Assembly (NCBI GenBank): GCA_951799445.1
Contig: OX637295.1
Span: forward strand, 6,262,001 to 6,326,000
DNA length: 64,000 nucleotides
From: Pseudisothecium myosuroides
Lineage: Eukaryota; Streptophyta; Bryopsida; Hypnales; Lembophyllaceae
Direction of reading: 5' to 3'
In this document: in pieces, positions 669 to 55,096 of the stretch
Position numbering within the stretch: position 1 is the stretch's first letter
Layout: each line of letters starts with the position of its first letter
The notes under the pieces: model-generated
Databases searched by the model: none
The model's input: only the letters and a program-made list of their open reading frames with translations
What the model was told of the DNA's origin: nothing
Translations under genes and position numbers: made by a program

Positions 669-672
669 TTAA

Positions 673-1643
673 CCCCTCACCGCCCAAGGCCGTTTTGGGT
701 TCAAAAACATCATTGCTTTTGAAGTGATATAGATCTAAATGTCACTAAGCTATAGAGATCTTAACCGTACAATCTTGTAGTGTACATGTTGTAAATGATG
801 TGTATCAAATTTGAAGTCATTTGACTGGATAGATTGCGAGATTATAATGTTTTAGTGTTGAAAAAGGATGCTGAAATTTTCCTAAAAACACATTTAGAGG
901 CAAAATTTGATTTCTAAACCTAATCAAATGAAAAAACTTTAAACTCTAAAGTGATTCAAAACCAGCATACAAACACATTGATGAAAAAAAATATCATTCA
1001 ATTGACTCAATGTGCTTGCAAAATAGCTTGCAAATGTCAAAAAATAGGCAAGAAAAATTGCAGAAAACACAGACAAGGCTAAACCTCCTTCTACTAAAAT
1101 GCTTCTCAGTCATTCATAACTTCTTGGATTGATATAAATTTTAGCCACACAAACTAGACTAGTATGCGCAACTTTCTCAAATTTTTTTATTGGAAACAGA
1201 CACTGTATGAAGAAGATACAAGCCGCCGAAGTTCACTGTAGTCCAAGAATGCCGGTATTTTGAATTTCGAATTGCTCCCAAACATTCAAAACAACTTGGA
1301 TTGACGTGAAAATTTGACCACAATAACTAGACTTCAAGGGGAATATAACCCAACAAATTTTTATTGAAATCGAACAATTGATGAAGGAGATACAAGCCCC
1401 CGAAGTTGCAGCCATAAATTGCACTTTGGTGAATCAAATTGAATCTGTGAACTTCGATTGGCTTCCAAAAAGTCATTACCTCTTGGATTGATCTAAAAAT
1501 TTTACCACACAAACTAGAAGAGAAGGCACAAATTTCTCAACAAGTTTTATTGAATTTGAACATCGGATGCAAAAGTTACAAATACTTTGAATTGGACTTG
1601 AAATTGTGTGAGGACACTTTTGGGCCCCTTGGGCAGTGAGGGG
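673..1643. mobile_element. TTAA-flanked non-autonomous element A
   Basis: The left end starts CCCCTCACCGCCCAAGG right after TTAA (669-672). The right end is GGGCCCCTTGGGCAGTGAGGGG, an imperfect inverted copy of the left end. It is a full-length homologue of element B (43645-44605). Its last 8 bp (GTGAGGGG, 1636-1643) are repeated at 5994-6001 and followed there by TTAA (6002-6005). A hAT element therefore inserted exactly 8 bp before its right terminus. Inside are about three degenerate direct repeats of roughly 180 bp, seen as CTTGGATTGA near 1122, 1299 and 1484. It has no coding capacity. The CCC..GGG termini and TTAA target match piggyBac-type elements. Confidence 0.8.
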
Positions 1644-11830: not shown

Positions 11831-12001
11831 TAATGTCAAGTCATGCAAAGTCCATGCTCTAATTCGGATTCCCACGTTGAAGGTGCATTGATGGCTTTGG
11901 ACAACGGCCGTTACCATGAGAGATTTTGTAGGATTATTTAATTCGGAACCCTAATCTCCTTTGATGGATCAAGTACCACCGGTGGCCAACCGGGGGAAGA
12001 A

Positions 12002-13046: not shown

Positions 13047-13072
13047 AGGAAAATTTTCAGTACCCGGGCACT

Positions 13073-16000: not shown

Positions 16001-16975
16001 AATAATGTATGGAAATATCATGGCATGCCGGAGGAGGTCATATCAGACAGGGGCTCCGTTTTTGTGTCAAAATTTATGCGTAGACTATGTGAACTCCTTA
16101 AGATCCAACCATCACCAACGACGGCTTTTCATCCCCAAGGGGATGGCCAAACAGAGAAGGTGAATCAAGTAATTGAACAATTTCTTTAAATGTTCACGAC
16201 AAAGCGTCAAGATAATTGGGCGGATCTATTGCCATTAGCCGAATTTGCCTATAATAACGCCTGCCATTCGGCAACAAGGTTCTCTCCGTTCTATGCCACG
16301 TACGGTTACCACCCGGCATTATCGTTTTCTATACCTACAACATCCACTGTTCCAGCGGCCGAGGACCGGGTTCGATATCTACAACAAGTTCATGAGGAAC
16401 TCAAAATTATGATTTTGATTGCGGGGGAACAAGCTAAGCGAAATTACGACCGAGGGGTACAACTACAACCGACCTTTCAACCAGGTGACAAAGTCCTCTT
16501 GCGCCATGAAAATATTGCAACTACAGAGCCCTCTCATAAATTAGCTTCTAAGTTTCTTGGACCGTTTTCAATAATAGCTAAACTCTCCGATCTCGTTTAC
16601 CGGTTAAAACTACCTAAGACATTGCATATTCACAATGTTTTCCATGTTTCTCTACTTGAAAAATACCGTGAGGATACCATTTCCGGACGTCGCCGCATAC
16701 CACCTCCGCCGATTATTACCCCAATTGGAGATGTGGAGTGGGAGGTGCACAAGGTTATTGATTCATGTTTATTCGGTCGTTGGAAAAAACTCCACTACTT
16801 GGTGTCATGGGAGGGCTATGGCCCGGAGGAGAATTCGTGGGAGCCGGCGGACAATCTTGAAAACGCACCGGAGGCGATTGCTGATTTTCATAAACTCCAT
16901 CCAACGGCACCGGGGCCCCAACCTAGAAGGGGGGATAATGTTACGAACCCGTTCGTAACAAGGGAACGGTTGTAA
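13073..16975 (+). pseudogene. gypsy pol (PR-RT-RH-IN-chromodomain), three stops
   Basis: One reading frame runs through the region, broken by TGA at 13604-13606, TAA at 14888-14890 and TAA at 16187-16189. The domain order is as follows. An aspartic protease has its active site DSGAT near 13334. The reverse transcriptase has YLDD near 14554-14565. RNase H begins ETDASDMATGAILSQ. The integrase has an H..H..CNLC zinc-binding region near 15655-15780, acidic residues in TDFIVKLP and SDRGSVF, and GQTEKVNQ. A C-terminal chromodomain (VSWEGYGPEENSWEP) ends the frame. The frame runs 37 nt into the 3' LTR. No functional polyprotein can be made from this copy. The chromodomain in this lineage is known to bind histone marks and steer integration. 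Confidence 0.9.
16925..16938 (+). other. Polypurine tract
   Basis: A purine run (AGAAGGGGGGATAA) sits immediately before the TG that opens the 3' LTR. This is the expected plus-strand primer site for reverse transcription. Confidence 0.75.
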
Positions 16976-17194
16976 CGGTTGGGTTAGTTGGCCTCTCCCT
17001 TCCCTTTAATAGTCAAGTGAGGAGGCTTGTTCCTCACTTGACATTTTGTGTAATGAAGATAATATGATTTTGGATACAATGTGTAAGTGTGATTCTCATT
17101 GTCATTATTGTAACTTGGTGGTGATTTAGTGTTGGTTTGCTTTGAATGCAATCTAAGTAGAGCATCGACTTCTTGGTCAAGCCGATCCGTAATA
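16939..17194 (+). repeat. 3' LTR of the gypsy element
   Basis: The LTR is about 256 bp, starting TGTTACGAACC and ending GTAATA, where the 5' copy has GTAACA. Its last 104 bp match the 5' remnant. An internal hairpin surrounds 17013-17040 (TCAAGTGAGGAGGC / TCCTCACTTGA). Confidence 0.85.
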
Positions 17195-17993
17195 TTAGCA
17201 CTAAATCAAATAATGGAGAAAGAAAAAATTTGCTTGTAAAAGCTCAAAATCCTATTTTAGGTTATTAATAATTCCTTTATTTTGTGAAGAAAAATAAAAC
17301 AAAAAAATATCGTGTAAGAAAAACTAGGGATATTAATCCGTGACTTAGTTTAAAGTTTTTTTTTCCTAAATTAGGAAAATACTTGGTTTTAATCCCGCCT
17401 AAGCTTGAAAGTTGGGGATGAAAAGTTTAAAAAAGAAAAAAGAAGACGGACTGATTGTTTTCTTTGTCCTTTGTCTTTTAATTCAAACCTTCTTTCCCCA
17501 AAAAAGAAAAAAAAAAGAAAAAAAAAGAAAAAAAAAAAGAACATTGGTCGTGCAAAGCAGGATAATAAATAGATACAAAGTACTTCTAAGAATCCCTGAC
17601 AATGGGGACCTCTAAAACAATAATAAATTCATTGTCCAACCTTTTTTTTTTTTTTTAACAAATGGAATGAACCATTGCATAACATTCAGTAGCAGTCACT
17701 GGCTCTACCCTCCCCTGAACGAAATGGTGTGGAATATACCGCACCAAATTAGTAACTATTGATTTGGTGCGGATAGTTGTCAATAATTGTCAAACATCAC
17801 TTGGTGCCTGCCTCCGTCACGACTATACACTGCTAGTGGCAAATTAAAAATTTCTAAGTAAAACTAAAAACTAAACAATAGGATCTTTAAACAAAATGCT
17901 GATGGATTCATTGAAATTATTGATTTCAATGTTATTGTAGAATTACCTCACTTTGAATTGGAATCCATTTGTGCAATGTGCTATAGAAGTGAG
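17195..17993. other. No gene; A/T-rich with poly-A runs
   Basis: A purine-rich AAAAAG tract (17500-17540) and a T run near 17643 are the only notable features. Nothing coding is supported. Confidence 0.4.
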
Positions 17994-18606
17994 AAGACAA
18001 CTCTTTATATGCACATGGAATGGTAGGATGTAGAACAATCCATGTGGGATATGTAAATTAGAATTTGTAGTTTCTCAACTGCCACTCATAGTTAAGTCAA
18101 AAGTAGAAATTGTGTTAAAAGTAAAATTTCAGACCTCATTTAGGCATAGTAGAATAACTTTTTTCAAAAAAAATTGAAATAAAAAAAGTTGGTAAATGAC
18201 AATAAGTTTCCCCTCCAAAAATCCGTTTGGGATTTTGAATCTCCAATCAAAAGTTATAGACAAATTTTGAAGAGGATTTTTAATGGACATTTTCTTTTAA
18301 CGCTTTTAAAAATCTATTCCAACCCCTCTCTGAAATTTGTTCATAACTTTTGATTGGAGATTCAAAATCCCAAACGGATTTTTGGAGGTGAAACTTGTTG
18401 TCATTTACCAACTTTTTCTAGTTCAAAGTTTTTTGAGAAAACTTATTTTACTATGCCTAAATGAGGTCTGAAATTCTACTTTTAATACAATTCTTTGTTT
18501 TTGACTTAACTATGAGTGCATGAAAACCTTACAAATTTTAATTTATTTATCCCACATGGGTTGCTCTACCTCCTACCACCCCATGTGTATTATATAGAGT
18601 TGTCTT
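17994..18606. mobile_element. Large foldback (hairpin) element
   Basis: Two arms of about 275 bp are inverted copies of each other: 17994-18275 and 18330-18606, with a loop of about 55 bp. Examples are AAGACAACTCT at 17994 against its complement at 18596-18606, and ATTTAGGCATAGTA near 18138 against TACTATGCCTAAAT near 18450. The inner arms share CAAACGGATTTTTGGAG. Arm identity is high but imperfect. There is no coding capacity, and the exact target duplication is unclear. A fragment of the same family lies at 9180-9262. Confidence 0.8.
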
Positions 18607-26419: not shown

Positions 26420-27682
26420 ATGTACAGATAATTATGGATGTTCTATGTGCTTTTAGCATCCTAGACCCTAAACCTACACAACGTCCTCGTACTAGTTGTA
26501 AGATATTCTTTTCGGAAGATACTATGTGTAAGTATATACAGAGTCATTAAAATAATAGAGGAAATAATAGAGAAGATGGTAAAAGTGTGATATTCTTGAC
26601 TAGTTGGGAAGTTATCATGTGCAGGCTTGTGTTGTAGTATTTAGATGATAGAGAAAATAATAGAAAAGGTGGTAAAATTATCAAATGTACCATTCAAGGT
26701 GGCGTGGATTTGTTTACTTATTTCCCATTTTTTCATTTGTGTGAAATAACAAATATTATATCCAAAATTCACAACATACTTCTAATAAACTTCCAAGACC
26801 AATATACAATACAATGTACAATGTTATACAACTGTGTTTGTTCAATTTAAAATAGTTTTGTTTTCAAAATGAGAGGCAAATATTTGGTTTCTAAAAACTC
26901 AAACTCCAAAGTCATTTGGATAGTTGGATCTAAGCAGACTAATAGGAACCAACTTGGGTGTAACCAATGCTTTTTTTTTTTTAAGAATCTTCATTCTTAC
27001 TCTTGAATATGAATTAAAATATGAAAAAAATATATAGTGCATTGTTTTTTAGATATGGCTATTTGACATAATACAAAACAAAAATAATCATGTCAAGTTT
27101 CTAAATATTAAAAAGACAAAAATGTAGTTGTAACTACTCCTTAAGCCATCCATAATGGATCCTTAATTCATCCAATTAAGGAGTATTTTAGATGAATAAG
27201 CAACAATTTTGGGTAGAATATTTCAACAAGGTTTTCTATAAGCACTTCAATCACGTTTCCTATTAGTGTGCTTTGACCCAACTGCATGGTTTGGTGTCTC
27301 AATATTGTCACAATTTGATTCGCTAATCAAACATCTCAAGAGAGGCTTGACCTAAAGAGAGCCTTTATAAGTGGATTCTTTTTGGAAAACATGCCCATTT
27401 AGAACTTCAAATATATTATGCCAAAGAAAGAAAAAATTTAAAATAAAAAAGTAAATCTATATAAAATGACTTCCAAAAAATGGACCTAATTTTCATGGTA
27501 TAAAAGTCCACAAAGACATGAACTACATAGATAACGGCACCAAAGAATTCATTAATAGATTAAAAATATTTTTGTTTATTATTACATTAGTTACTATAAA
27601 TCATTCTTATATGTTTTCTTTAAAAAAAAAGTCCACATGTATAAAAATTAACTGTTGCGATAATCCATACATTTATCTTTAA
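26420..27682. other. P450 3' flank, no gene
   Basis: AT-rich sequence with the P450 3' UTR at its start. A T/A-rich run lies near 26971. Nothing else is recognised. Confidence 0.35.
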
Positions 27683-28592
27683 CCTCTAAAGAACCGTTGT
27701 CCCTTTGGGGGACAAATGGGATTTCCGGCAGGTACCTACAGGCTGAATTTTTGTTGTGATTTTTTGAAATTTTTTTTCAAGATAGAAAAATTGATAAGCT
27801 TTGCAGGAATATAATTTTTTCACAATTGGTGCCCGGGAACAAAAGTTATGACCAAATAAGCTCAAAACATGGGACGAAGGGCAGCAAAAAAGAAATTGCA
27901 AAAATTTGAATTTTTTTTTTGAATTTTTTTTCTTGTAGATTATATTTTTTTCTATCTGGAAATCTTTGATTCATTCCATTTGGATTTGTTATGAGACAGT
28001 TATGGACATCTTATTTTTCGGGCAATTAGAGTGTCTTCTTGAAAAAACAAACTTGTAGGATTCATTTCTGAATGCAATTTTTGCAATTTTTGTAATTTTT
28101 TTTTGCATGGTTTAGTTTACTTGCTAGAACAATCTCACCATTGGGATTAGTGCATTTTAATTCCATCTAAAAGATTTTAATATTTTAGATTTTCCTTCTA
28201 TCTTGTACCTACTTCCATTTAACAATTTTTTTGAGAATGATAATTAAGTTTTTGAATTTTTTTTTCCTAGACTCTCAACTCAATTCTCAACTGTAAAGGT
28301 TTAAAGCTAAAAACTCTATAGTGCAAAAATTTAATATTAAAATTCTTCAAAGTCAAAAAAACTAGTCCCGCAATATGCTGAAAAACTTGTATTTTTCACT
28401 TTAAATGCAAATATCTTGCAATCTATGTGGTCAAAAATTCTGAAATTTTTTCATACATTCTTATACTAGTTAGGTGGAAGATCCTACGGTTAGATGTGCA
28501 AAAAAAAAGATTCAATTTTTTTTACTCTTTGCTATAGAAATGGTAGTTTTGAATGTTTTTTGGCAGAAAAAAAGGACTTGGGCCTTCAAGAG
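27683..28592. mobile_element. TTAA-flanked element G
   Basis: It starts CCTCTAAAGAACCGTTGTCCC after TTAA (27679-27682) and ends CTTCAAGAG before TTCA. The right end is an inverted, worn match to the left. The interior is homologous to F (47075-48006) along its whole length. It is non-coding. One flank has decayed from TTAA. Confidence 0.75.
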
Positions 28593-29682
28593 TTCATAAA
28601 AAATAGACATTGGTTGTCAAAATAAATACATAGATGTCTTTTTAATAAATTTTTTATGTTCTTAATCTAAAAATAGGAAAAAAATATAATACTTTGTGTG
28701 ATATTCACTTTGGAATACAAATCTTTCCCTAAAATCAACCTTATAATATGGTTATTGAGACACCACACCATGCATCTACACAAACTATTTTTCACTTGGT
28801 AGAAATAATCTCAAAAATCTATACAAATGTAGCCCATTCTTCTAGTGTACACACCAAACAAGATTTTAGAGATGTCAAAGTTCAAGTTTATGTTCTACAA
28901 CTCAATAGAAGGTGATTTTTAAACACAATTTGGTACCCCGTGTAAAAGATGTAGTATTTTTGAGACAAGATCCTAGAGTCAAAATCACACAATGTTCCAT
29001 CCAAAATGATATACCCAAGTAAGCACTTACAAAAAGTCAAGAAAACTATATGACCTTTTTACACTTGAATAGAGACATACTAGAGCAATGTGAACCCTAG
29101 TATTGTGAGGAGTTGTTACAACAAAAAAAATGCACTAGAGAGACATTAGCAATTGATAATTAGAGAGGCGCAGATGTGTGCAAATTCCCAAGTGCCCACA
29201 ACAAGATTGGAAAGTGTACTTGGAGTTTAGAATTGATTATAGTAACTTTCTATCATTCACAAGTGTAGTGGATGATGTCTTCACACTTTTTGTTCTTTTT
29301 TGTTATGTGCTTTGAAGGATCCTAATTGATTTCAATACCTGGAAATATGAAATATTTCAACTCCTAGAGATATAGAATTGGCTACTTCTTATCAGTAAAG
29401 CACTAGAAGGTTGGATAACACTCTAGGGACACCATCAGTTTGCAATAATGAAGTGCCTTGTTCTTTTTTGCTAATGGTTAAGCAATTGATTGAATACAAA
29501 GACAATACATTTGATGACCCTCACAAGGAGAAGATGGATATTAAAAAGGCCAAGGAGTTGTTGGGATGAGAGTCCAAGGACTGGTGGCTTTGCAATAGGT
29601 ATTATTCCAAAAGATAGAAGATTCCCAAAAGCGTATTTTTTGTGATCACAAGGACAAAGAGTCCAATCTGTAGAAGTTTTTG
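28593..29682. other. No gene recognised
   Basis: AT-rich. A stretch at 29100-29600 has slightly more coding-like composition (for example a plus frame with KDNTFDDPHKEKMDIKKAKELL near 29500) but is full of stops. It may be a worn-out transposon gene. No family could be named. Confidence 0.3.
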
Positions 29683-34618: not shown

Positions 34619-34622
34619 TTAA

Positions 34623-35191
34623 CCCCTAAACGTCTGGATTCATCTCCAAAATTGACGATTTGAGAAAAACCATTATAAACTCCAATTTGGAAGAATATTT
34701 TGGAATTGGTATATAAATGAAAGCTGTAGATTTTGATTTTTAAATTCTATCCGTACGGTTAGATCTACTAATGCTATCACCAATCTTTTTCTATAAATTT
34801 TGAAAAGAAAATTTCAGAATTCCTTCTAAATTCAATTACAAGTAAAATATTATCAATTTTTGAGTAAAACTTGTTGGAATGGATTTGAAATAAGGTTCTC
34901 TTCATATGGTGATTTTTTGAAATTTTTGTGACCTTTACATCTTTGACCTCATTTTTGCACATCTAGTTTTGAACTAAAGTCAATGCAAATTGACCACTTG
35001 ACATACTTCCACATTTGTAATTTTAGAAATGTATATATTCTAGTAACACCAAATCCAACCGATGGATAGGACAACAACTTGATAAAGTATCACCAAAAAT
35101 TAGGATGACTTTCATCCAAGCAAGAATGAGACAGAAACAAGGATTTGAATCTGTTCATCGTCCAGAAAATGGACGTCGGAGCGCTCCAAGG
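34623..35191. mobile_element. TTAA-flanked element J
   Basis: TTAA lies on both sides (34619-34622 and 35192-35195). It starts CCCCTAAACGTCTGG and ends GCGCTCCAAGG. Its interior is homologous to I (46335-46914), for example ACACCAAATCCAACCGATGG. It is 569 bp and non-coding. Confidence 0.8.
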
Positions 35192-35195
35192 TTAA

Positions 35196-37395: not shown

Positions 37396-38523
37396 CTAAA
37401 GCCCTAGGCTTTTAGCATGAGAAAGGAAATCTTTCCAACTATGAGTCATGTCTCTCAATTCTGGAAAAATTGAATCAGGATGTCGATAGCGATGGTCTAT
37501 AGAACTAAAGTAAACATTTCCAGCCATGAGTGCTTTGATACCTTGCATGTGATTTTGCAAAGTAGGATTCCAAGCTTGAGACTCCAAATCCAAGATTGCA
37601 CGACCATATGTGTTCACTAAGGCTATTGCCATATGCACCGTTTGGACAAAAGGCTTCCCTTCACATTCCAATAGTACAGAGAGCAAATTGCGAGGGTTTT
37701 GTTCTAGTGCGCTCTCCTTGTGGTATGAGAAGATATCGTTTACAAATCCAAGATGGATGGAAGTTGCCTTGGTTAAATTTTCCATGTATGGACTTGTCCT
37801 CAGTATACCTGGAATGTAGCTATCATGGGCAAGCTCTACCATCATTTGAACAAATCTCCCTCCAACATTTCCAGCACGCATAACAGCATAGGACTCTACA
37901 TCCTGAAAGCTTAAGTTATGGCCTTGAACAATATCTTCATAGCTAGCAGCACCTGCATGGTGGTGTTCTACGATACATTCATAATAATGATTGAACCATT
38001 CAGGGTTGGTCAATTCCAACGTGTATTGTCCTGCCTCCCACATAATGGTCTCAATCAAAGGAGCAGGATTACTTGGTTGCACTTGTTGATTAAAAATTGC
38101 ATCCAAGTGGTCAATATATTCTTGAATTTTTTGGCAGCTTCCATGTGTATCATGGCTAATGCCATATTTGTGCTCATGATGTTGCCATCCATTTGGGTTG
38201 TCAAAAAAGATATCATCCACCAAGAACTGCAATGCATAACTAATGGCAATTGCTACAATACGATCAACGCTAACTGCTCCAGGGTGCCCGTAGACCGCTG
38301 CAGAAAGGCCCTCACGACAAAGGGTGTCCAAGAAAATTGCATTCGGATAGCGCTTGACATATTGGTGCATGCGATTTTCGGCCTCGTCTACGTACTTGGA
38401 GATCTGGAATGGCGGGAGGCCGTCAATGGCCATAGAGAGCAAGGATGGAAACTGATCATCAACAAGTTTGTCTAGAGAAATTGGATCCATGAGCTTTGTA
38501 GTCTTAGTCCCTGAGCAAGACAA
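37396..38523 (-). CDS. Microbial-type terpene synthase (MTPSL), intact
   Basis: This is a single-exon gene of 375 codons for a class I terpene cyclase. Such enzymes ionise a prenyl diphosphate (farnesyl or geranyl) with Mg2+ and cyclise it in the cytosol. The aspartate-rich motif is DDIFFD (D103, D104, D108), a DDxxxD form. The second metal site is NDIFSYHKE (N262, S266, E270), the NSE/DTE triad. An Arg at 216 precedes it, and the C-terminal RY pair is R345-Y346. There is no plastid transit peptide and no plant N-terminal beta domain, so it belongs to the microbial-like family of non-seed plants. The start at 38523 is the first ATG; M12 is a plausible alternative. The frame has no lesion. Product chemistry cannot be predicted. 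Confidence 0.9.
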   Translation of the reverse strand: MSCSGTKTTKLMDPISLDKLVDDQFPSLLSMAIDGLPPFQISKYVDEAENRMHQYVKRYPNAIFLDTLCREGLSAAVYGHPGAVSVDRIVAIAISYALQFLVDDIFFDNPNGWQHHEHKYGISHDTHGSCQKIQEYIDHLDAIFNQQVQPSNPAPLIETIMWEAGQYTLELTNPEWFNHYYECIVEHHHAGAASYEDIVQGHNLSFQDVESYAVMRAGNVGGRFVQMMVELAHDSYIPGILRTSPYMENLTKATSIHLGFVNDIFSYHKESALEQNPRNLLSVLLECEGKPFVQTVHMAIALVNTYGRAILDLESQAWNPTLQNHMQGIKALMAGNVYFSSIDHRYRHPDSIFPELRDMTHSWKDFLSHAKSLGL

Positions 38524-38643
38524 AATATTGGTGTCATCAAATTTTTCCTTAAATTTTACCTACTATTCATCATGTCAGTAGTTTCAAAAATCAACCAAAT
38601 TCTTTTTCCCATTTTCACTAGTTCACAATACACCAGCCCTCAC

Positions 38644-40150
38644 AAACTGATTGCTTATTATTTAGCCCCTCGCCCTTTTACAAAGAGGAGGTAACTTAGC
38701 GATTTAAGCTTATTTGGTCTGGGAGGGCACTGTTCAGCCTGCTGGGTGCACAACACGTGAGCTGGGCAGTGAGAGTTAACCCTGGAAGGACATGCCCATG
38801 ACCACGGATTTCAAGCATCACTCTCTTTGCTGTCATTTTGCAACTAAATATGAGAAAATTTTATAATTCATTTTTCAGAGATGAAATCATATGTATAACA
38901 CACGTCATAAAATTTTCAAATTTTGTGAGGAAAATTCAAAATTACTGTAAATTTTCTAAGAAACCAGTCAAGAAAATTCATACTAAATACAGAGTATACT
39001 AAAAAAATTCGGAAATTTCACCATAGATGTCTATTGTAGTGTGTAACATCATGGTATAAACCAAAGTTACTATGTCACTCCAAAATTAGAAAATCAACAA
39101 CCCATAGTTACAAGCTCAAAGTTCACATTGCAATAAAACATTTAAATTTACTAGTTTTTCAAAATTTCCAATTGGAGTAGAAACTACATGTGATAAGCTT
39201 GAATTCCTTCATTGGACTCAATTTTTTTTTTAAAACATCATTTTTATGGCTAAAATTCACATCAATAGTAGATAACACGAAATGGCCAAGATACACTACA
39301 AGGGTGATCCATGGATTCAACATCTTCTCCTTTAAAAAACTCAATAATTCCATAACGAGGGAATTTGCAATACCATTCACTGAAAATATACTCAAGCAAC
39401 TTCCAAAAAAACATTGGATGAATAAACATTCTTTTTCCATCCTACAGTCTTAGGTGAAGTTCATTCAAAGGACGTTTTGCATTCTCAGCACAGCTTCAGC
39501 GTTAAACTGTACAAGAGAATATACATTGGCAATTTGGCATGCTTCCATCATACTGTCCATCTAAATTCTTTGTAAAAAACTTTGGCAAAATTTTGAACAA
39601 AAAAACAAGGCAAGGGCAGAAGGCTTACCAGTAATATCGCGCACCCTGGTGTGCTGCTTCGCAGGGACTGCATCTTCAGTGCTGGAGGAGAGAGGCGACG
39701 CTTGCTTCGTGGCCGAGGTGCTGGATCCGCGGCCCTTTTGAAGGCCACTGCACTTGAGACCCGCTTGTCTCCCCCAGGGGGAAAGGGATACCGGGGACTG
39801 TATGCAAGCTCCGGGCTGTGGGATCCGCGGGGAACACACACACAGCATAGTCTGTGTGGAAATCATCGTTCTGGACTGGCCCTCACAGAAGAGTCACAGG
39901 GAATATAAGTTCTACTGTATGAGAAAGGGTGAAAACTTATGGGACTGGTTTAGCAAAACAATGAAGTGGGTCTGTGTTATATAGGGCACACTGTCCTAGA
40001 AACCCGCCAGGGTGGGCCCTTGCTAAATGTAACCCAAACAATTTCTGAAATATTTCATTGCCACGATGTGCCTAGTGGCCTCATTTTCTGGCAGAAAAAA
40101 ATGGTTTAACAAAAAAAAGATGCGCAGTTTGCACTCAGACTAGTGCCTAC
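38644..40150. repeat. Duplicated segment S, copy 2
   Basis: This is homologous to 131-668 plus 6006-6250. It carries element K1 at a TTAA (38776-38779) but lacks the 5.3-kb A/hAT insertion of copy 1. The corresponding unoccupied site is TTAT near 39938. Homology fades after about 40145. A short minus frame around 39600-39720 retains the ATKQAS..SSSTEDA phrase, followed by a possible splice donor (ACTG/GTAAGC). A gene origin for S is possible but unproven. Confidence 0.6.
38780..39501. mobile_element. TTAA-flanked element K1
   Basis: TTAA lies on both sides (38776-38779 and 39502-39505). It starts CCCTGGAAGGACATGCCC; the other end read inward starts CGCTGAAGCTGTGC. Copy 1 of segment S lacks it, with GAGAGTTCT at the same place. 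K2 (45301-45998) is the same family in the opposite orientation. Non-coding. Confidence 0.72.
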
Positions 40151-40705: not shown

Positions 40706-41100
40706 AGGGAATGATCCATTTCAATCTTGTATTGACCTATATCAAACTTTTTTCAATAAATGAAATTTGGACTGCACTAGGTTGAGTTAGTAGCTACAAT
40801 AAATGTCTTGGGTGATAGTGATGGAGTGATCAATGATTGTAATAGGAACTTCCGCCTTTTTAGTGTACATTCATCAAAGCAAGTGACTTTTTTAGGCCTT
40901 CATGTCATAGTCATGGTAGGAAATATTGTGACTACTTTAGGTGAATAAAATGACCACTATCTCCTAAAATCCTATGGCCTTATTATCATAAAAACAAAAA
41001 AAACAAAAAAAACTGCCATTTCTATTGCAAAGTGCAAAAAACTTTAAAATTTGTTTTTTTGGCATATCTGACTGTAGGATCTTCACTAGAATAGTATATA

Positions 41101-41102
<2 letters not shown>

Positions 41103-41140
<38 letters not shown>
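41103..41140. repeat. TG microsatellite (19 units)
   Basis: A perfect TG run inside the left half of element E. Confidence 0.97.
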
Positions 41141-41145
<5 letters not shown>

Positions 41146-41192
41146 AATTTTAGAAACTATGACCGCGTAGATTGAAAGATATTTGCATTTAA

Positions 41193-41762
41193 CCCCTAAA
41201 GTCCCATTGGCCCTACGGGGGCCAAAATGCAAGTTCGGGTAGGCTCGCACAGTCTTAATATTCATCATTATTTTCTAAAACTTCTTGTAAAGCTAGGAAA
41301 ACACATAAGCTTCTTGGGAATACAATTTTTATTTCAATCGGTGCCCAGAAGCAAAAGTTATTGCACAAAAAGCCAAATATGGAGGTCGGCGGGCAGACCA
41401 AAAAAAATCACAAAAAGTCAAAATAATTTTTTTAAAATTTTTTTCCTAAAATATTATATGTTTGTCTACATGTAAAACTTTTCTTCATTCTGTTTGGACT
41501 AGTGACGAAAAAGTTATGGACAATCTTGTTTTTCAGGCAATCTTGAAAAAAAACTTTTTGCCCAATTTTGAATGCTAATATCTTCCAATCCGTATGGTCA
41601 AATTTGATGAAATTTTTACCACATGATCTCAGACAAGTGAAGTGTAAGATCCTATGGTTAGATTCTTAAAAAAAGTATTTTTTCTACTTTTATGGATGAA
41701 TGCAGCAGAAATGGCAGTTTTGAGTGTCTTTTGACAAAAAAATGGCCTTGGGACTTTAGGGG
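41193..41762. mobile_element. TTAA-flanked element D, nested in E
   Basis: TTAA lies on both sides (41189-41192 and 41763-41766). The left end is CCCCTAAAGTCCCATTGG and the right end read inward is CCCCTAAAGTCCCAAGG. It split the phrase GCATTTAAAGTG of its host, which is intact in sister copies (complement near 28392, and 58893), into GCATTTAA..TTAAAGTG. That demonstrates TTAA duplication. 570 bp, non-coding. Confidence 0.9.
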
Positions 41763-42497
41763 TTAAAGTGAAGAATAAAGTTTTTTTTGCACCTTTCTTG
41801 ACTAGATTTTTAGGCTTGGAATCATCTTAACTTAAAATGTTTGCACTAGTAGTTTTGAAATTCTAATTTTTTATGTTGAAGAATTGAATTGACAATCTAA
41901 TTTTTTTTTTAAAACAACAAATTAGTTTTTACTCATTAAAAAATTATTAAGTAGAAGTAGGTTCAAGATTGAAGGAAAGACTAAATTGTTTGTAGCTCTA
42001 AGAGGGAATTAAAACACGCTAATCTCAATAGTGAGATTGTTCTAGTAAGATATCATAACCTTGTGAATTTTTTTTATTTTTAAAATTGTAGAAATTAAGT
42101 TCAAAAATGAATCCTACAAGTTATTTTTTCAAGAATGCCAATGCTCTAATTGTCCCAAAAATAAGATTTTCCATAACTTTCACATTACAAATTCAAATGG
42201 AATAAATTAAAGCTTCCAATGTAGATAAAATTACAATCTGATGAGAAAGAAAATAATAATAATTTAAAAAAAGAAAAAATTGTTGGGGCAGAGGGATTGT
42301 CTGCCAAACCTAAAAAAAGGGCTTTTTGTGCCATAACTTTACTCGTGGGCACCAATTGAAATAAAAATTATATTCCCATAAAGCTAATTTTTTTTCTACC
42401 TTCACAAAAAGTTTTAGAAAATCTTGACAAATATTGAGAATGTAGGAGCTTGGCCAAAATTCATTTTGCGTTCGAAGGGGACAATGGGACTTTAGAG

Positions 42498-42755
42498 GAT
42501 ATGGATACACTTTTTGTTGATTTTGGGGTAGTGTTAAAGAGTCTTGTAGGCCAATTGGGTAGCACACTTCAAAAATTCACTACAAATTCATACTTTGTGA
42601 AAGTTAAAAGATTTGAATTGTTCTCCCCGTATCTCACATTTGTCTTTACATGAAGAAAAGAAATTAAAAAATTTCAACAATGCCAACAGGGCAAACCAAA
42701 CCAGTCATTTTGCCTGTTGTCATAGGCTGGTTTACCGGTGCCCAGCTTGTATAGC
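42498..42755. other. No gene
   Basis: Short AT-rich spacer between element E and the hairpin at 42756. Confidence 0.4.
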
Positions 42756-42830
42756 CCCATGTTAAGTTATTTGGCGGCCCATGCAAAGCAGCAGCCGTCT
42801 AATAACAGCCGCCAAATAACTAAACATGGG
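42756..42830. repeat. Hairpin with 23-bp arms
   Basis: Left arm 42756-42778 (CCCATGTTAAGTTATTTGGC..) and right arm 42808-42830 match at 22 of 23 positions, with a 29-nt loop. Possibly a miniature foldback element. Confidence 0.8.
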
Positions 42831-43150
42831 AGAGTGCGGCCTAATAAACACCAGGGTAGAGTTAGTCACTTCTCTACCAACCACATCGAGACACGTGGAC
42901 TTGCAGTCACTTGTACAGTTTTGCTGAGCACTCCGACATGCCGTGCTCATGTCATTGGCTGCACAAGATACCGAATTACCGACGCCACCTCTCTGACGGC
43001 AAACAAGGCAGAGTGCGGTGGCCTGATAAACACCACGCTATGGTAGAGTGACTGACACGGTATCATCAGTTTTTTGGTAACTAGCCGAGACACCGCTGGA
43101 CTTACCAAAACTCAGATATTTTGGCTGAGTACACAGACGACGGGGGGTGA
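42831..43150. repeat. Two diverged tandem units of about 180 bp
   Basis: GAGTGCGG..CCTRATAAACACCA..GGTAGAGT occurs near 42831 and again near 43011. The following CACTGGACTT..GCTGAG phrases also repeat. One related unit sits at 6330-6410 beside S copy 1, so this belongs to the S neighbourhood. Confidence 0.5.
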
Positions 43151-43186
43151 TGTCATCTACAGATATTTATTAACCCTGTCATGCAG

Positions 43187-43399
43187 GTCCCTTGGTTGTG
43201 TGGGATACAGGAGCGGTCGTCCTTGGCGGCCGTGTTGGTGGATACAGGGGTGGTGATCCTTAGCCGTGTGAGATACAGGGGCAGTGGTCCTTGGCCGTGT
43301 GGGATACAGGGGCGGTGGTCCTTGGCGGCCGAGTGGGATACAGGAGCGGTGGTCCTTGGCCATGTGCGATACAGAAGCGGTGGTCCATGGCTGTGGGCG
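43187..43399. repeat. GC-rich minisatellite, 36-39 bp unit
   Basis: About six units of GGGATACAGGGGCGGTGGTCC-type sequence, with TTGGCCGTGT or TTGGCGGCCGTGT spacers. It is strongly G+C rich compared with its surroundings. Open frames through it are by-products. Confidence 0.85.
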
Positions 43400-43644
43400 C
43401 TTAAGGTGGGTACACCCAAAACCGCCACTTTTTGCTACTGAGCCTAGTTTTTATTATTAGATTGTTCAGATTTTCATATGTTCTTGTTGGCAAGTGAAAG
43501 GAGGTTCCAACGCACCAAAGAACGTGGTATTTGGATGTTGTATGCAAAAGTTATTATGGAACAAAGATTGGTTCTAAAATGGTTTCTTTCACATAGGTAC
43601 AGAATTGATTTTGAAGATGTACACAAAGTAAAGATGGCGGTTTA

Positions 43645-44605
43645 CCCCTCAAGGCCCAAGGCCTTTTTGGGTTTAAAAACATCATTGCTTCTGAAGTGGT
43701 ATAGTTCAAAATGTTAGTAAGGTATAAAAATCTCAACTGTACAATCTTGTAGTGTACGTGTTGTAGATGGCGTGAATCAAATTTGGAGTCATTTGACCGT
43801 GTAGATTGCAAGATTATAATGTTTTAGTGTAGAAAAAAGATGCTGAAATTTTCCTAGAAACACATTTGGAGGTGAAATTCGATTTCTAAACCTACTCAAA
43901 TAGAAAAATTATACACTATGAAGTGATTCAAAACCACCATACAAACACATTGGTAAAAAAAACCCATGATTGAATTGCCTCAATATGTCTACAAAATGGC
44001 TTTGAAATGTCAAAAAAATAGCAAAAAAAGTACATCTAGGGCTGAACCTGCTTCTACTAAAATGCTTCTCAGTAACTCATAACTTCTTGGATTGTTATGA
44101 AATTTTAGACACACAAACTAGACTAGTATGCACAACTTTCCCAAAAAGAATTATCGAAATTGGACACTGTATGAAGAAGAAACAAGCCGATGAAGTTCAC
44201 TATAATCCAAAAATGTCTGGACTTTGAACTTTGAATTGCTCCCAAACATTGAAAACATCTTAAATTGACATGAAAATTTTACTACAATAACTATACTTCA
44301 AGGGGAACATAACCCAACAAATTTTATTGAAAACAAACATTAGACAAAGGAGATATAAGCCCCCAAAGTTGCAGCCTTCAAATGCAATTTGTGAACTCAA
44401 ATTGAACCTGTAAACTTTGATTGGCTTCCAAGACATCAATACATCTTGGATTGATCTGAAATTTTTACCACATAAACTAGAAGAGAGAGCGCAAATTTTC
44501 CGACAAGTTTCATTGAATTTGGACATTGGATGCAAAAGTTACAACACTTTGAATTGGATTTGAAACTCTGTGAGGCCTTTTTTGGGCCCCTTGGGCGTTG
44601 AGGGG
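43645..44605. mobile_element. TTAA-flanked element B
   Basis: It starts CCCCTCAAGGCCCAAGG after TTTA (43641-43644) and ends GGGCGTTGAGGGG before TTAA (44606-44609). A full-length homologue of element A, including the three internal repeats. 961 bp, non-coding. Confidence 0.82.
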
Positions 44606-44609
44606 TTAA

Positions 44610-45255
44610 CCCCTAAATGCCCAAGGCCTTTTCTGAACTTTTAGGAATTTGCTCTAAGTTGAACAAAAAGCCAATATTTTGATAAGTTGTACCAATTTTT
44701 TATGAATTGTAACCATACAAATTCAAACTAGACATGTTAGAGGTCACATAGGAAAAGAAAACACAACAATATCACTTATGAATTGAAAGATTATAATGTT
44801 TGAACATGACGGTGTTAAAATTGCAAAAATGACTTGAAGTCTTTCAACCCTCTTTTCACATGCTAAATCTAAAAAGTTGGTCACCAAAAAAATATGAGGT
44901 TAAAGAACTTAACATGCATAACCCCAATCAATTTACGGCTTCTCAAAATCTACTCCACAATATTTTAAAATGAATTTCTAAGGTGATTTTTTCTCCAAGA
45001 TCTAGTGTATTTGAGGCTCATTTCCAAGAGCCCCCAATATTATGAAAAGTCAAGATTGCAATGGGTACCCTTGCACAAAATCTTGAACAGAAAAATCATA
45101 ATCAATAATTTTCACAATCAGATTTCTGACGCTAAAACTAGACTTCAAAAAAAAAATTCAAAAATATAAATTACTAAAAATAGCAACTTGATTAAGTTTT
45201 ATTTAACTTCAAAGTTTTGTCAACATTAAAATTTGGTGCCTCGGGCATTTAGAGA
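44610..45255. mobile_element. TTAA-flanked element C
   Basis: It shares one TTAA (44606-44609) with B on its left and has TTAA (45256-45259) on its right. The ends are CCCCTAAATGCCCAAGGC and, from the right, TCTCTAAATGCCCGAGGC. 646 bp, non-coding. Confidence 0.82.
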
Positions 45256-45300
45256 TTAAGGTCAGTAGCACATTTGGGTGTAGCTACCTTAACTCTGTAA

Positions 45301-45998
45301 CGCTGCTGCGGACACTAAGTGTGTCTATTTGGATGACTTCACTTAAGCCTATAGGATGGAAATAAACATTTTTTCATGCATTTTGTTTTTAAAGGTTGCT
45401 TGAGTATATTTTCAAAAGATAGTATTGTAGATTCCCTCATTAGGGTATTATTGACTTTTTTAAATAAGAGAAAGGATCACAACCTTGTAGTGTACTTTAG
45501 CCATTTCTTGCTATTTACTCTTGATGCAAATTTTTTCCATAAAAATGATGTATTTTGAATTTGAGTCCAACTAAGGAAATGAAGCTTATCCAGTGTAGTT
45601 TCTACTCCAATTGGAAAATTTGAAAAATTCATAAATTTCATTATTTTATAGCATTATGAAATTTGGGCCTATAATCATGCTTTTCTAATTTTAGAGTGAC
45701 ATGGTAATTTTGATTTATATCATAATGTTATACACTATAATATACATATACGGTGAAAATTTTGGGTTTTTTGAATATATTTTGTATTTGACATGAGTTC
45801 ACTTCATTTTTTAAAAATCCCAATAAATTCAATTTTTTTGCAAAAAAATTGAAAATTTTAGGACTTACAATAGACATATGATTTCATCTCTAAAAATAAA
45901 TAAATATTTTTGATTTATATCTATTTGCAATATGGCAACAGGCAAAGTGATAGACAATGAGGCTTGAAAACAATGGTCATGGGCCCATCCTTCCAAGG
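45301..45998. mobile_element. TTAA-flanked element K2
   Basis: An inverse-orientation copy of K1. The right end read inward is CCTTGGAAGGATGGGCCC with TTAA at 45999-46002. The left end CGCTGCTGCGG is preceded by GTAA. 698 bp, non-coding. Confidence 0.7.
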
Positions 45999-46077
45999 TT
46001 AAATTATAAATCATGCCGGGCTCATAGAACCTCCAAATGAAATGAAATTTGTAGCAAATGGTAGTTGAGGGTGTTAA

Positions 46078-46321
46078 GGTGAGTACACTTAAACTCACAT
46101 CCTTTCTAAAACCGCCATCATCAATCTATATATGTCTCCAAAATCAATATGTAGGTATGTTGAAGAAACAATTTTAAAAAAAACTACCAAAATAACCTTT
46201 GATCCTTTATAACTTTTGTGTACAATATCCAAATGCCAACAAGAAAATATAAAAAATTTGACCAATCTAATAATAATAACTAGACACAATAACAAAAAAT
46301 TGGCGGTTTTGGGGTACTACC
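46078..46321. mobile_element. TTAA-type MITE L2
   Basis: The ends are GGTGAGTACACT and, from the right, GGTAGTACCCCAAAACCGCC. Flanks are TTAA (46074-46077) and TTAG (46322-46325). 244 bp; the reverse complement of the outer parts of L1. Confidence 0.75.
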
Positions 46322-46334
46322 TTAGCTTAATTAA

Positions 46335-46914
46335 CCCCTAAAGGACTAGAGTATTCTCTAGAATTGACAAATTGAGAAACATCATTAAAAAATGCTATTT
46401 GGAAGAATATTTTTGACGTGGTATACAAATGAAAGTTGTACACTTTAAGTTTTAGATTCCATCCGTATGGTTAGATTCACCTTTGTTATCACCAATATTT
46501 TCTTATAAATTTTGAAAAAAAAATTTCAAAATTCCTTCAAAATTCAATTACAAGCATAATATTATCATTCTTTGAGTAGTATTTGTTAGAATGAATTTGA
46601 AATGACTTTTTCTTTACATGGTGATTTTTTGAAATTTTTGTGTTCTTTAAATTGATGATCTCATTTTGGCAAATCTAGTTTTGAACTAGATTTAATGCAA
46701 TTTTGGCTTGGTCAACAACTTCAGATACTGATACATTTGTAATTTTAGAAAAAATTATATACTCTAGTAACACCAAATCCAACCATTAGATAGGACAACA
46801 ACTTGATTAAGTATCTCCACAAATTAGGATGACTCTCATCCAAGCAATATTGAGAAAGAAATGTTAGTTTTGATCTATTTGTTGTCCAAAAACTTGACGA
46901 TAGAGCACTTAGGG
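46335..46914. mobile_element. TTAA-flanked element I
   Basis: It starts CCCCTAAAGGACTAGAG after TTAA (46331-46334) and ends GAGCACTTAGGG before TAAA. The interior is homologous to J (ACACCAAATCCAACC, CATCCAAGCAA). 580 bp, non-coding. Confidence 0.78.
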
Positions 46915-46934
46915 TAAAGCATAGCCCTGTGTAA

Positions 46935-47070
46935 GGTAGACACACCCATTCCCGTTCCATTATTCCATTCTATTGTCATGTACCAATGGTGCATATTTTT
47001 TGTCTAGAATTTATTCCATTGGTACATGATGACAAAATGGGATACATGGACAGGAATGGGTGCGTCTACC
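46935..47070. mobile_element. Small TTAA-type MITE, copy M2
   Basis: Inverted ends GGTAGACACACCCATTCC / GGTAGACGCACCCATTCC. Left flank GTAA; the right flank TTAA (47071-47074) is shared with element F. 136 bp; sister of M1. Confidence 0.8.
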
Positions 47071-47074
47071 TTAA

Positions 47075-48006
47075 CCCCTAAAGGACCGTTGTCCCTTTGG
47101 GGGACAAATGCGTTTTCGGGCAGGTACCTACGGGCTGAAATTTTCTTGTGATTTTTTGAAATTTTTTTTGGAGATAGAAAAACTGATAAGCTTTGTGGGA
47201 ATATAATTTTTTTCACAATCGGTGCCCAGGAAAAAAAGTTATGACCAAATAAGCTCAAAACAGGGGACGGCGGGCAGCCTGGGCAGCAAAAAAAAAATGG
47301 ACGAAAATTTGAAATTTTTTTTTTAATATTTTTTTTCTCATAGATTATATTTTTGTCTATCTGGAAAGCTTTGATTCATTTCATTTGGATATGTTATGAG
47401 AAAGTTATGGACATTCTTGTTTTTCAGGCAGTTAGAGCATTTTTTTGAAAAAAATAACTTGTAGGATTCAATTCTGAATGCAATTTTTCAAATTTTTCAA
47501 ATGTTTTTTTTTTGCATGATTTAGTTTACTTGCTAGAACAATCTCACCATTGGGATTAGTGCATTTTAATTCCATCTAAGAGATATGAATATTTTAGATT
47601 TTCCTTCTATCTTGTACCTACTTCTACTTAACAATTTTTTTAAGAATGATAATTAAGTTTTTTTTATTTTTTATTTTTATCCTAGACTCTCAACTCAATT
47701 CTCCACTATAAAGATTTAAAGCTCAAAACTCTGTAGTGCAAAAATTTTAAGTTAAAAATGTTTAAAGTCAAAAAATCTAGTCCCGCAATGTGCTGAAAAA
47801 CTTGTTTTTTTCACTTTAAACGCAGATATCTTGCAATCTGTGCGGTCAAAAATTCTGAAATTTTTTCCACAAATTCTCATACTAGTTAAGTGTAAGATCC
47901 TACGGTTAGATGTGAAAAAAAAAATTTCAATTTTTTTTACGTTTTGCTATAGAAATGGCAATTTTTAGTGTTTTTTGGCAAAAAAAAGGTCTCGGTCCTT
48001 TAGGGG
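47075..48006. mobile_element. TTAA-flanked element F
   Basis: TTAA on both sides (47071-47074 and 48007-48010). It starts CCCCTAAAGGACCGTTGTCC and, from the right, CCCCTAAAGGACCGAGACC. 932 bp, homologous to G and H. The best-preserved large copy in the window. Confidence 0.9.
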
Positions 48007-48010
48007 TTAA

Positions 48011-52499: not shown

Positions 52500-54420
52500 C
52501 TCGCGGAGGGGCGACCAAATCCCCTCCCCATTTTTTTAGTTCCAATCGAGCTCACCCACAAAAGTCCCCTCTCCACAGAGGGTACTTTTTCACTACCCAA
52601 GTGTTGCGACAATTTCAGTTTTTGGTACCTGATTTCAGTTGTGGAACAGGGGAGGCGAGACCAAATCCCCTCTTAATTCTTTTTTTGTTCCAACCGAGCT
52701 CACCCACAAAAGTCCCCTCTCCACCGAGGGCACTTTTTCACTACCCAAGTGTTGTGACAATTTTAGTTTTGGTACCCGATTTCAATTGTGGAACGGGGGA
52801 GGGGAGAAGCAATCCCCTCTTTATTTATTTTTTGTTCCAACCGAGCTCACCCACAAAAGTCCTCTCTCCACTGAGGGCACTTTTTTACTACCCAAGTGTT
52901 GCGACAATTTTAGTTTTTGGTACCCGATTTCAGTTGTGGAACGGGGGAGGGGAGACCAAATCCCCTCTTAATTTATTTTTTGTTCCAACCGAGCTCACTT
53001 GTAAAAGTCCCCTCTCCACCGAGGGCACTTTTTCACTACCTGAGTGTTGCAACAATTTTATTTTTTGGTACCTGATTTTACTTGTGGAACAAGGGAGAGG
53101 AGACCAAATCCCCTCTTAATTTTTTTTTGTTCCAACCGAGCTCACCTGTAAAAGTCCCCTCTCCACCGAGGGCACTTTTTCACTACTCGAGTGTTGCAAC
53201 AATTTTGTTTTTTGGTACCTGATTTCAGTTATGGAACGAGGGTGGGGAGACCAAATCCCCTCTTAATTTTTTTTTGTTCCAACCGAGCTCATCCATAAAA
53301 GTCCCCTCTCCACCGAGGGCATTTTTTCACTACTCGAGTGTTGGGACAATTTTATTTTTGGTATCTAATTCTAGATGTAGATATCGAGGGAGGGGAGACC
53401 CAATCCTCTCTTAATTTTTTTTTGGTTCCAACCGAGCTCACTCGTAAAAGTCCCCTCTCCACCTAGGGCACTTTTTCACTACCCGAGTGTTGCAACAATT
53501 TTATTTTTTGGTACCCAAGTGTTGCGACAATTTTATTTTTTGGTACCCGATTTCAATTGTGGAACGGGGTAGGGGAGACCAAATCCCCTCTTAATTCTTT
53601 TTTTGTTCCAACCGAGCTCACCCACAAAAGTCCCCTCTCCACCGAGGGCACTTTTTCACTACCCAAGTGTTGCGACAATTTTAGTTTTTGGTACCCAATT
53701 TCAGTTGTGGAACGGGGGAGGGGAGAAGCAATCCCCTCTTAATTTATTTTTTGTTCCAACCGAGCTCACCCACAAAAGTCCCCTCTCCACCGAGGGCACT
53801 TTTTCACTACCCAAGTGTTGCGACAATTTTAGTTTTTGGTACCCGATTTCAATTGTGGAACGGGGGAGGGGAGAAGCAATCCCCTCTTTATTTTTTTTTG
53901 TTCCAACCGAGCTCACTTACAAAAGTCCCCTCTCCACCGAGGGCACTTTTTCACTACCCAAGTGTTGCAACAATTTTATTTTTTGGTACTTGATTTCAGT
54001 TGTGGAACGGGGGAGGGGAGAAGCAATCCCCTCTTAATTTTTTTTTGTTCCAACCGAGCTCACTTGTAAAAGTCCCCTCTCCACCTAGGGCACTTTTCCA
54101 CTACCCGAGTATTGCGACAATTTTATTTTTTGGTATCCAATTTCAGTTGTGAAACAAGGGAGGGGAGACCAAATTCCTTCTTAATTTTTTTTTGTTCCAA
54201 CCGAGCTCACCTGTAAAAGTCCCCTCTCCACCGAGGGCACTTTTTCACTACCCGAGTGTTGCGACAGTTTTATTTTTTGGTATCCAATTTCAGTCGTGGA
54301 GATCGGGGGAGGGGAGACCAAATCCCCTTTTAATTTTTTTTGTTCCAATTGAGCTCACCCGTCCTCTCCACCGAGGTCTCTTTTCCACTACCTGAGTATT
54401 GTGTCAATTTTGTTTTTTGA
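52500..54420. repeat. 147-bp satellite array, about 13 units
   Basis: The anchor CTCCAC recurs at 52571, 52719, 52866, 53014, 53161, 53308, 53457, 53637, 53785, 53932, 54079, 54226 and 54366. Spacing is 147-149 bp except one 180-bp step, caused by an internal duplication of about 32 bp near 53510-53545, and a shorter last unit. Each unit contains TTCCAACCGAGCTCAC, a T-rich run and TTTTTGGTACC. Units differ by a few percent. Because 147 is divisible by three, long frames stay open. They are not genes. Confidence 0.95.
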
Positions 54421-55096
54421 TATCCGATACTCAATTTATAGTTTAGGCTCAAGTCATTCATGTGATTTGCATGTAGTGCTTTTTATATTACTTGATTAAT
54501 CTAATCTCTTTTTATTTTGAACTCTGTGGTTTTGTAGGTTCCTCCACTAGGGATGAATGTGCTACCTCTTGTCGACAATGCGTTGGAAACGGTGAGTCTG
54601 CTACATCTTGAGAGGCGTTTGGTAAATCTTGATGCTCTATTAAGGGCCCTTATAGGAGAATGGGACCTCCCATCTCCAATGTCCTGTTGTATGTCATTGG
54701 GCTTAGATGATGAAGTTTACATCCTTCCTGATTCTCTAATGACTTTTGGACAAGAATTCTATAGTTCTCTTGAGTATCAGGTATCATCCAGCTCCTGAAT
54801 AGGGGATAAGACTCTGTGTCTTTACTACGGGCTTTGGAAGTCCATTCATGAGTTGTACAGCTGTAGACAATACTAGGATTCTTAAATATATTTGGATGAA
54901 AGCAGAATTGATTGGACTTCTGACTTTCGATATTAAAAATGTTGGCCTTCTATTTTTATTTCTGTCCTTTGCATGTGTATCTCTTGGAGTATGCTGTAAT
55001 TGAAAGGTCCACCTTTGATCTCACAAATGTGTTTGTTTGTACTTAGAATATGGCAGCTGATACATTGACCAACCTTGCTTCTATGACTTTGGTGCT

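What the first reader, a model, noticed from the sequence alone, without database searches (positions are those of the whole stretch)
40961..48010. Dense family of TTAA-target, CCC..GGG-ended elements (piggyBac-like MITEs) in a plant
At least a dozen insertions across the window sit between TTAA tetranucleotides: A, B, C, D, F, G, I, J, K1, K2, L1, L2, M1, M2. One class has CCCCTAAA/CCCCTCA ends, the other GGTRG..ACCC ends. Five or more have TTAA intact on both sides (C, D, F, J, L1, K1). CCC-starting ends with TTAA duplication are the mark of piggyBac elements, which are well known in animals and some protists and fungi but are not among the common plant classes. No transposase is present here, so the source element must be elsewhere or extinct. 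Kolobok-type elements also use TTAA and are the main alternative.
Basis: partly seen in the sequence, partly recalled or inferred. Interest (0 to 1): 0.85.

Follow-up and report, generated by a model that had tools for sequence, protein, structure and literature searches.

The report
PiggyBac jumping genes in a moss
A moss-like genome is packed with thousands of short jumping-gene relics that insert at TTAA, and the same genome carries full-length piggyBac transposons with matching ends, a kind of element well known from animals but not among the usual ones of land plants.

Summary
The window's own 388-Mb, moss-like genome could be searched. The CCCC...GGGG elements are piggyBac-type MITEs: of 4,939 exact ends CCCCTAAAGGACCG in the genome, 4,520 (92%) are preceded by TTAA, and nested copies show one TTAA becoming two. 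TTAACCCCTNAANGNCC occurs 24,144 times, its reversed control once.

The missing source exists. The piggyBac transposase family PF13843 gives 116 scored matches among 899 candidates. Full-length elements of 5.2-6.2 kb carry it between TTAA-CCCC ends; two copies of family A are 99.9% identical and two of family B 100%, at different sites. One such element, L046, is homologous to the window MITE E6 at both termini.

Half of the picture is wrong: the GGTRG-ended class is not a TTAA family. Of 20 sampled ends, 18 have NTAA with a free first base and only 5 have TTAA, so its target is TA (Tc1/mariner-like).

I found no description of mobile piggyBac elements in a moss in the papers searched. Whether the transposases move these MITEs today is inferred.

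The parts
669..1643 (+). Class-1 (piggyBac-type) MITE, family II copy a, ends CCCCTCACC / CCCCTCACTGCCC; TTAA on the left only
   Evidence: 83.5% identical to 43641-44605; ends
27679..28596 (+). Class-1 MITE E6b, paralogue of E6, ends degraded
   Evidence: 87% identical to E6; TTAACCTCTAAAG at 27679
34619..35195 (+). Family III copy a, TTAA on both sides, weak right TIR
   Evidence: 80% identical to 46331-46899
38776..39505 (+). Family IV copy a, TTAACCCTGGAAGG ... CTTCAGCGTTAA, weak TIR
   Evidence: 74% identical to 45328-46002 reversed
40957..42493 (-). Element H, relative of E6, ends degraded, interrupted by E1 and a (TG)n run
41189..41766 (+). Class-1 MITE E1, perfect 14-bp TIR CCCCTAAAGTCCCA, inserted into a TTAA of H
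   Evidence: empty-site comparison; right end 86% identical to autonomous L045 over 227 columns
43402..45291 (+). Class-2 (TA-target, GGTRG-ended) family VI copy a, interrupted by E2 and E3; not a piggyBac element
   Evidence: TA target shown for family V, inferred for VI
43641..44609 (+). Class-1 MITE E2, family II copy b, TTTA / TTAA
44606..45259 (+). Class-1 MITE E3, TTAA on both sides, shares a TTAA with E2
   Evidence: other copies in L025, L036 and L038
45289..46002 (-). Family IV copy b, TTAA on both sides, weak TIR
46075..46324 (+). Class-2 family VI copy b, right flank CCT-TA-G
46331..46918 (+). Family III copy b, TTAA / TAAA
46932..47073 (.). Class-2 family V MITE (palindromic, TA target), abutting E6; second copy at 9816-9945
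   Evidence: 454 candidates in the genome; flanks
47071..48010 (+). Class-1 MITE E6, 940 bp with both TTAA, perfect 14-bp TIR CCCCTAAAGGACCG; member of a family of thousands
   Evidence: 6,911 candidates, 40 scored at 94-100%; both termini homologous to autonomous L046
58704..59881 (-). Degraded relative of E6 (H2)

Best explanation
The CCCC...GGGG elements are non-autonomous piggyBac transposons (MITEs) of a moss, and autonomous piggyBac elements of 5.2-6.2 kb in the same genome encode the transposase. As in known piggyBac systems (established knowledge, not tested here), the enzyme would bind the CCCC ends and subterminal repeats, cut the element out through hairpin intermediates and join it into TTAA, which leaves a TTAA on each side. 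Shown here: TTAA duplication, matching ends, a transposase domain with the catalytic aspartates, and near-identical copies at different sites. Inferred: that these transposases move these very MITEs, and that they can still do so. Elements pile up side by side because each insertion makes a second TTAA that can be hit again.
For: TTAA before 4,520 of 4,939 ends and on both sides of 26 of 30 fetched E6 copies with unrelated outer flanks. Empty sites: E1 in H, E6 in E6. 24,144 end motifs, reversed control 1. PF13843: 116 scored of 899 candidates, best E 1.7e-83. Full-length elements with TTAA-CCCC ends: A 5,414 bp and B 5,632 bp counting both TTAA, L046, L047, L048, L044. All 5 A and all 6 B copies of the identical-score groups have TTAA on both sides and different neighbours. 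Sequence match to solved piggyBat and piggyBac (E 9.8e-32, 4.3e-21). D178, D257, D370 and D373 invariant in 6 of 6 aligned moss transposases, Cys-rich tail in the 5 that reach it. E1 and E6 ends homologous to L044, L045 and L046.
Against: No movement, excision or expression was observed. The E6 and E1 families are only 70-86% identical to the autonomous ends fetched (8 elements compared of 899 candidates), so their exact source was not found. Among the 12 window copies 6 have a degraded TTAA. Families III and IV have weak right TIRs. 419 of 4,939 ends lack an exact TTAA. Some transposase copies hold stops (for example L007 and L008). The 14 control genomes are unlisted in the answer and say little about eukaryotes.
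Confidence: 0.95

Rival explanations
1. The CCCC class belongs to another superfamily that uses TTAA (Kolobok, or Sola3), and the piggyBac transposases are unrelated neighbours in the genome.
For: Kolobok also duplicates TTAA (PMC9587614, passages). The exact autonomous partner of E6 was not found.
Against: Kolobok ends are 5'-RR..YY-3', these are CC..GG. Elements with a PF13843 transposase have the same ends, and L046 is homologous to E6 over about 100 and 188 columns at its two termini. Neither a Kolobok nor a Sola3 transposase was searched for in the genome.
Confidence: 0.03
2. The piggyBac transposases are contamination from an animal, protist or other organism in the assembly.
For: Of the four rows that name an organism, three are animals and one is labelled a bacterial MAG.
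Against: The 116 listed places lie on contigs C1-C11; those whose length was shown (C1-C5, C7-C10) are 26-55 Mb long and also hold the E6 copies. Flanks of L043, L047 and L039 hold copies of the window's families IV and VI. The named animal rows are only 26-28% identical to B.
Confidence: 0.01
3. The GGTRG class is also a TTAA class (Kolobok-like).
For: Five of the eight family V/VI ends in the window read TTAA. Ends are 5'-RR..YY-3' if read from GG.
Against: Of 20 family V ends sampled without regard to flank, 5 have TTAA and 18 have NTAA with A 6, T 5, C 4, G 3 at the first place; 11 fetched copies show the same. TA target with TIR AGGTAGAC fits.
Confidence: 0.04

Closest known systems
piggyBac (Trichoplusia, PDB 6x67) and piggyBat (Myotis, PDB 9c0f)
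   Same: TTAA target duplication, CCC ends, DDD transposase that aligns over about 390 residues including the catalytic aspartates
   Different: Moss ORFs of 1,032 and 1,068 aa against 594 and 578 aa; elements of 5.2-6.2 kb; an upstream conserved ORF in another frame; plant host
Coral CMITEs and their piggyBac partners (PMC2872659, passages)
   Same: Piggybac-derived MITEs with TTAA; ends such as CCCCTCAGTGTCCG and CCCTTTAACGCCC are very like CCCCTCACTGCCC here
   Different: About 100 bp long against 578-972 bp for E1, E3, E2, IIa and E6 here; animal host
PiggyBac entries in plant repeat tables, for example Ceratopteris (PMC6890710, passages)
   Same: Same superfamily label in a land plant (1,230 hits)
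   Different: 122 kb in all, about 100 bp a hit, no element, end or transposase described in the passages seen
Tc1/mariner MITEs (for the GGTRG class)
   Same: TA target duplication, short palindromic element
   Different: TIR AGGTAGACRCACCC, not the CTCCCTCC of plant Stowaway (recalled); no transposase looked for

Membership tests
piggyBac superfamily (CCCC class and its autonomous elements) | TTAA target-site duplication | tested here: met
   4,520 of 4,939 ends; 26 of 30 E6 copies; 5 of 5 A and 6 of 6 B copies; empty sites
piggyBac superfamily (CCCC class and its autonomous elements) | CC[CT]T ends with TIR of about 12-19 bp (PMC2872659) | tested here: met
   Perfect 14-bp TIRs in E1, E6 and L046; CCCCT at both ends of A and B. 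Not clearly met on the right of families III and IV
piggyBac superfamily (CCCC class and its autonomous elements) | Transposase of family PF13843 with DDD catalytic residues | tested here: met
   for the autonomous elements; the MITEs encode none
piggyBac superfamily (CCCC class and its autonomous elements) | Cys-rich C-terminal domain | tested here: met
   CxxC...CxxC tail in 5 of 6 aligned rows, the sixth being cut short; not matched by a Pfam model
piggyBac superfamily (CCCC class and its autonomous elements) | Precise excision without footprint, hairpin intermediates | not testable with these tools
   Needs an assay
MITE (non-autonomous derivative) | Short, high copy, no transposase, ends shared with an autonomous element | tested here: met
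   E6 940 bp, 6,911 candidates; ends shared with L044-L046
Kolobok (CCCC class) | Termini 5'-RR..YY-3' (PMC9587614) | tested here: not met
   Termini are CC..GG
Kolobok (GGTRG class) | TTAA target-site duplication | tested here: not met
   5 of 20 ends have TTAA
Sola3 | Sola3 transposase between the ends (that Sola3 uses TTAA is recalled) | not tested
   No search for it was made
Tc1/mariner (GGTRG class) | TA target-site duplication | tested here: met
   18 of 20 ends NTAA with a free first base; both sides in the 11 fetched copies broadly agree, two of them with a damaged left end
Tc1/mariner (GGTRG class) | Transposase of that superfamily between the same ends | not tested
   Searches for family VI and for longer copies did not complete

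The most novel reading that the evidence does not exclude
Mosses carry several long-established lineages of large piggyBac transposons, with a long N-terminal extension and a private upstream domain, that have jumped until very recently and have seeded more than ten thousand MITEs: a native, possibly still working piggyBac system of land plants.
Probability: 0.7. Interest if true: 0.82.

Novelty: new variant of a known kind. Interest (0 to 1): 0.72.

Why it matters
[quoted passage not shown] A moss with full-length, near-identical piggyBac copies and tens of thousands of piggyBac-type ends would widen the known host range of a superfamily used as a standard genetic tool, offer natural plant piggyBac enzymes to test, and make the origin of the group in land plants (descent or horizontal transfer) directly testable.

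Tried and rejected
Kolobok for the GGTRG class: rejected on the flanks. An internal motif of E6 searched in prokaryote and viral contigs gave 0 matches, as expected for a plant repeat. Distances among 30 E6 copies (median K2P 0.048, range 0.009-0.071) were computed, but no date is given because no rate was tested. The shared N-terminal stretch was sought in the 129 proteins held and not found. The five-sequence alignment misplaces parts of H because nesting is not modelled; local comparisons were used instead. In one search no matching ends were found in L001-L008 because those loci were too short. No structure prediction was run. One tree was built: the 9 moss transposases do not form one clade but at least two groups mixed with unnamed environmental proteins; the two animal rows are long and their place is unsure.

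Literature: ten searches, whose listings I saw; the last (mosses, PiggyBac, genome assembly, DNA transposons) listed none. Passages were seen of PMC6890710, PMC10045372, PMC10813416, PMC2872659, PMC5199201, PMC6004289, PMC9587614, PMC10619864, PMC9033089, PMC10794571, PMC5791352 and PMC5963040; no paper was read whole. Against novelty: PMC10813416 says in its summary that piggyBac has been isolated from insects, fungi and plants, without detail in the passages seen; a Ceratopteris table lists 1,230 PiggyBac hits; PMC10794571 names PiggyBac among plant superfamilies; a Dracaena genome paper that holds the word appeared in listings and was not opened. In the moss paper PMC10619864 the word is only 'piggybacking'. 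Repbase, other moss genomes and preprints could not be searched.
Full report
WHERE THE WINDOW COMES FROM. The window is G000:C9:6262001-6326000 of an assembly of 387,930,709 bases in 222 contigs. The terpene synthase ORF at 37399-38559 (-) has 11 relatives; the only one that names an organism is from the moss Pseudotaxiphyllum elegans (64% identity), a member of the Hypnales. A cytochrome P450 and a Ty3/gypsy retrotransposon lie nearby. I take the host to be a moss; this rests on one gene and is likely, not proven.

THE OBSERVATION. In the window TTAACCCCT occurs 12 times against 0.61 expected. Self-comparison shows that the TTAA-bounded blocks are repeat families, some interrupted by others. 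E1 (41189-41766) and E6 (47071-48010) have perfect 14-bp inverted repeats directly inside TTAA. I count 12 class-1 copies, about 15% of the window; 6 of the 12 have TTAA on both sides.

TTAA IS THE TARGET. The best test does not select on the flank. The 14-mer CCCCTAAAGGACCG occurs 4,939 times in the genome (reversed control 0), and 4,520 of these (92%) are preceded by TTAA. The wider motif TTAACCCCTNAANGNCC occurs 24,144 times (reversed control 1), which would be about 12,000 elements if each had two such ends. Of the 30 E6 copies fetched (of 40 scored, 6,911 candidates) 26 have TTAA on both sides, while their outer flanks are unrelated (mean identity 27%). Two empty-site comparisons show duplication. 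E1 sits in H at a TTAA that is single in E6 and E6b, with the sequence continuing on both sides. One E6 copy sits inside another (C2:4906824-4908699) at a TTAA that is single in uninterrupted E6. E2 and E3 lie side by side in one family-VI element and share a TTAA, and E6 abuts a family-V element at a TTAA, as expected if each insertion leaves another usable target.

THE SOURCE. The Pfam family of piggyBac transposases, PF13843, gives 116 scored places among 899 candidates, best E 1.7e-83, and rings in 0 of 14 control genomes. Longer stretches showed complete elements. A: 5,414 bp counting both TTAA, ends CCCCTCAGGGCCGG, two copies 99.9% identical. B: 5,632 bp, ends CCCCTAAACGACCC and CCCCTAAATGTCCT, two copies 100% identical. 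The end stretches of the other three A and four B copies all show TTAA on both sides and different neighbours; of these seven only the ends were fetched. L046 (6,173 bp, TIR 14 of 14), L047 (5,370 bp, 13 of 14) and L048 (5,166 bp, 11 of 14) also have TTAA-CCC ends, and L044 runs from one TTAACCCCTAAAGGACCA end to the other over 5,626 bp. The left end of L045 is not settled, and no end pair was found for L043. The ORF of B (1,068 aa) matches solved piggyBat and piggyBac by sequence (E 9.8e-32 and 4.3e-21). In six aligned moss transposases the aspartates D178, D257, D370 and D373 are invariant, and the five rows that reach the C terminus share a CxxC...CxxC tail.

LINK OF MITE AND SOURCE. The right end of E1 is 86% identical to that of L045 over 227 columns. 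E6 is 76% and 70% identical to the two ends of L046 over 100 and 188 columns, and L046 carries a transposase whose matched domain holds no stop. A subterminal palindrome GTCCC...GGGAC is shared by E6 and L046 and reads GGCCC...GGGCC in E1. The MITEs are therefore shortened relatives of the resident piggyBac elements. That the present transposases move them is inferred.

THE OTHER CLASS. Family V has 454 candidates in the genome. Of 20 ends fetched from the 96 exact matches of a pattern that ignores the flank, 18 have TA before AGGTAGAC, preceded by A 6, T 5, C 4, G 3. The target is TA, as in Tc1/mariner. Family VI shares the end motif and shows CCT-TA-G and CCT-TA-T at two ends, but reads TTAA at the three other window ends; its genome-wide table was not obtained, so for VI the TA target is inferred.

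NOVELTY. Protein searches with B (28 rows) and with a six-sequence alignment (100 rows) show no row that names a plant. The closest (up to 83% identity over 55% of the query) are unnamed jgi and lgn contigs; the four rows that name an organism are three animals at 26-28% and one bacterial MAG at 31%. The papers seen do not describe piggyBac elements in mosses, though one abstract names plants among the sources of piggyBac, a fern repeat table lists 1,230 short PiggyBac hits and one review names PiggyBac in passing. The mechanism is that of a known superfamily. New are the size of the transposase, an upstream stretch shared by A, B, L047 and L048, weaker in L043 (no Pfam match), the host and the scale of amplification. 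I therefore call it a new variant of a known kind.

Noticed in passing
L039:5399-6136 (-), L041:5413-6216 (-), L047:969-1247, L048:5565-5861: About 95 residues upstream of the main transposase ORF, in another frame in A and B, are conserved between families (28-37% identity) and match no Pfam model: probably a first exon with an undescribed N-terminal domain.
   Followed up: partly
L056 and window 46932-48010: In both places an E6-type element sits in the CCTTAA (or ACTTAA) end of a family-V element; TA-class ends may often serve as TTAA targets.
   Followed up: no
window 41189-41200 and other class-1 ends: The end CCCCTAAA contains CCCTAAA, the plant telomere repeat unit (recalled); probably coincidence.
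   Followed up: no
window 2309-5286 (+): Three ORFs in a row (386, 196 and 229 aa) without Pfam match that look to me like pieces of a hAT-type transposase gene (impression, not tested).
   Followed up: no
window 11727-17195 (+): Ty3/gypsy LTR retrotransposon with 105-bp end repeats 98% identical.
   Followed up: no
window 52505-54428: Tandem array with a period of about 147 bp.
   Followed up: no
window 17994-18606: Large imperfect palindrome of about 610 bp, probably another inverted-repeat element.
   Followed up: no
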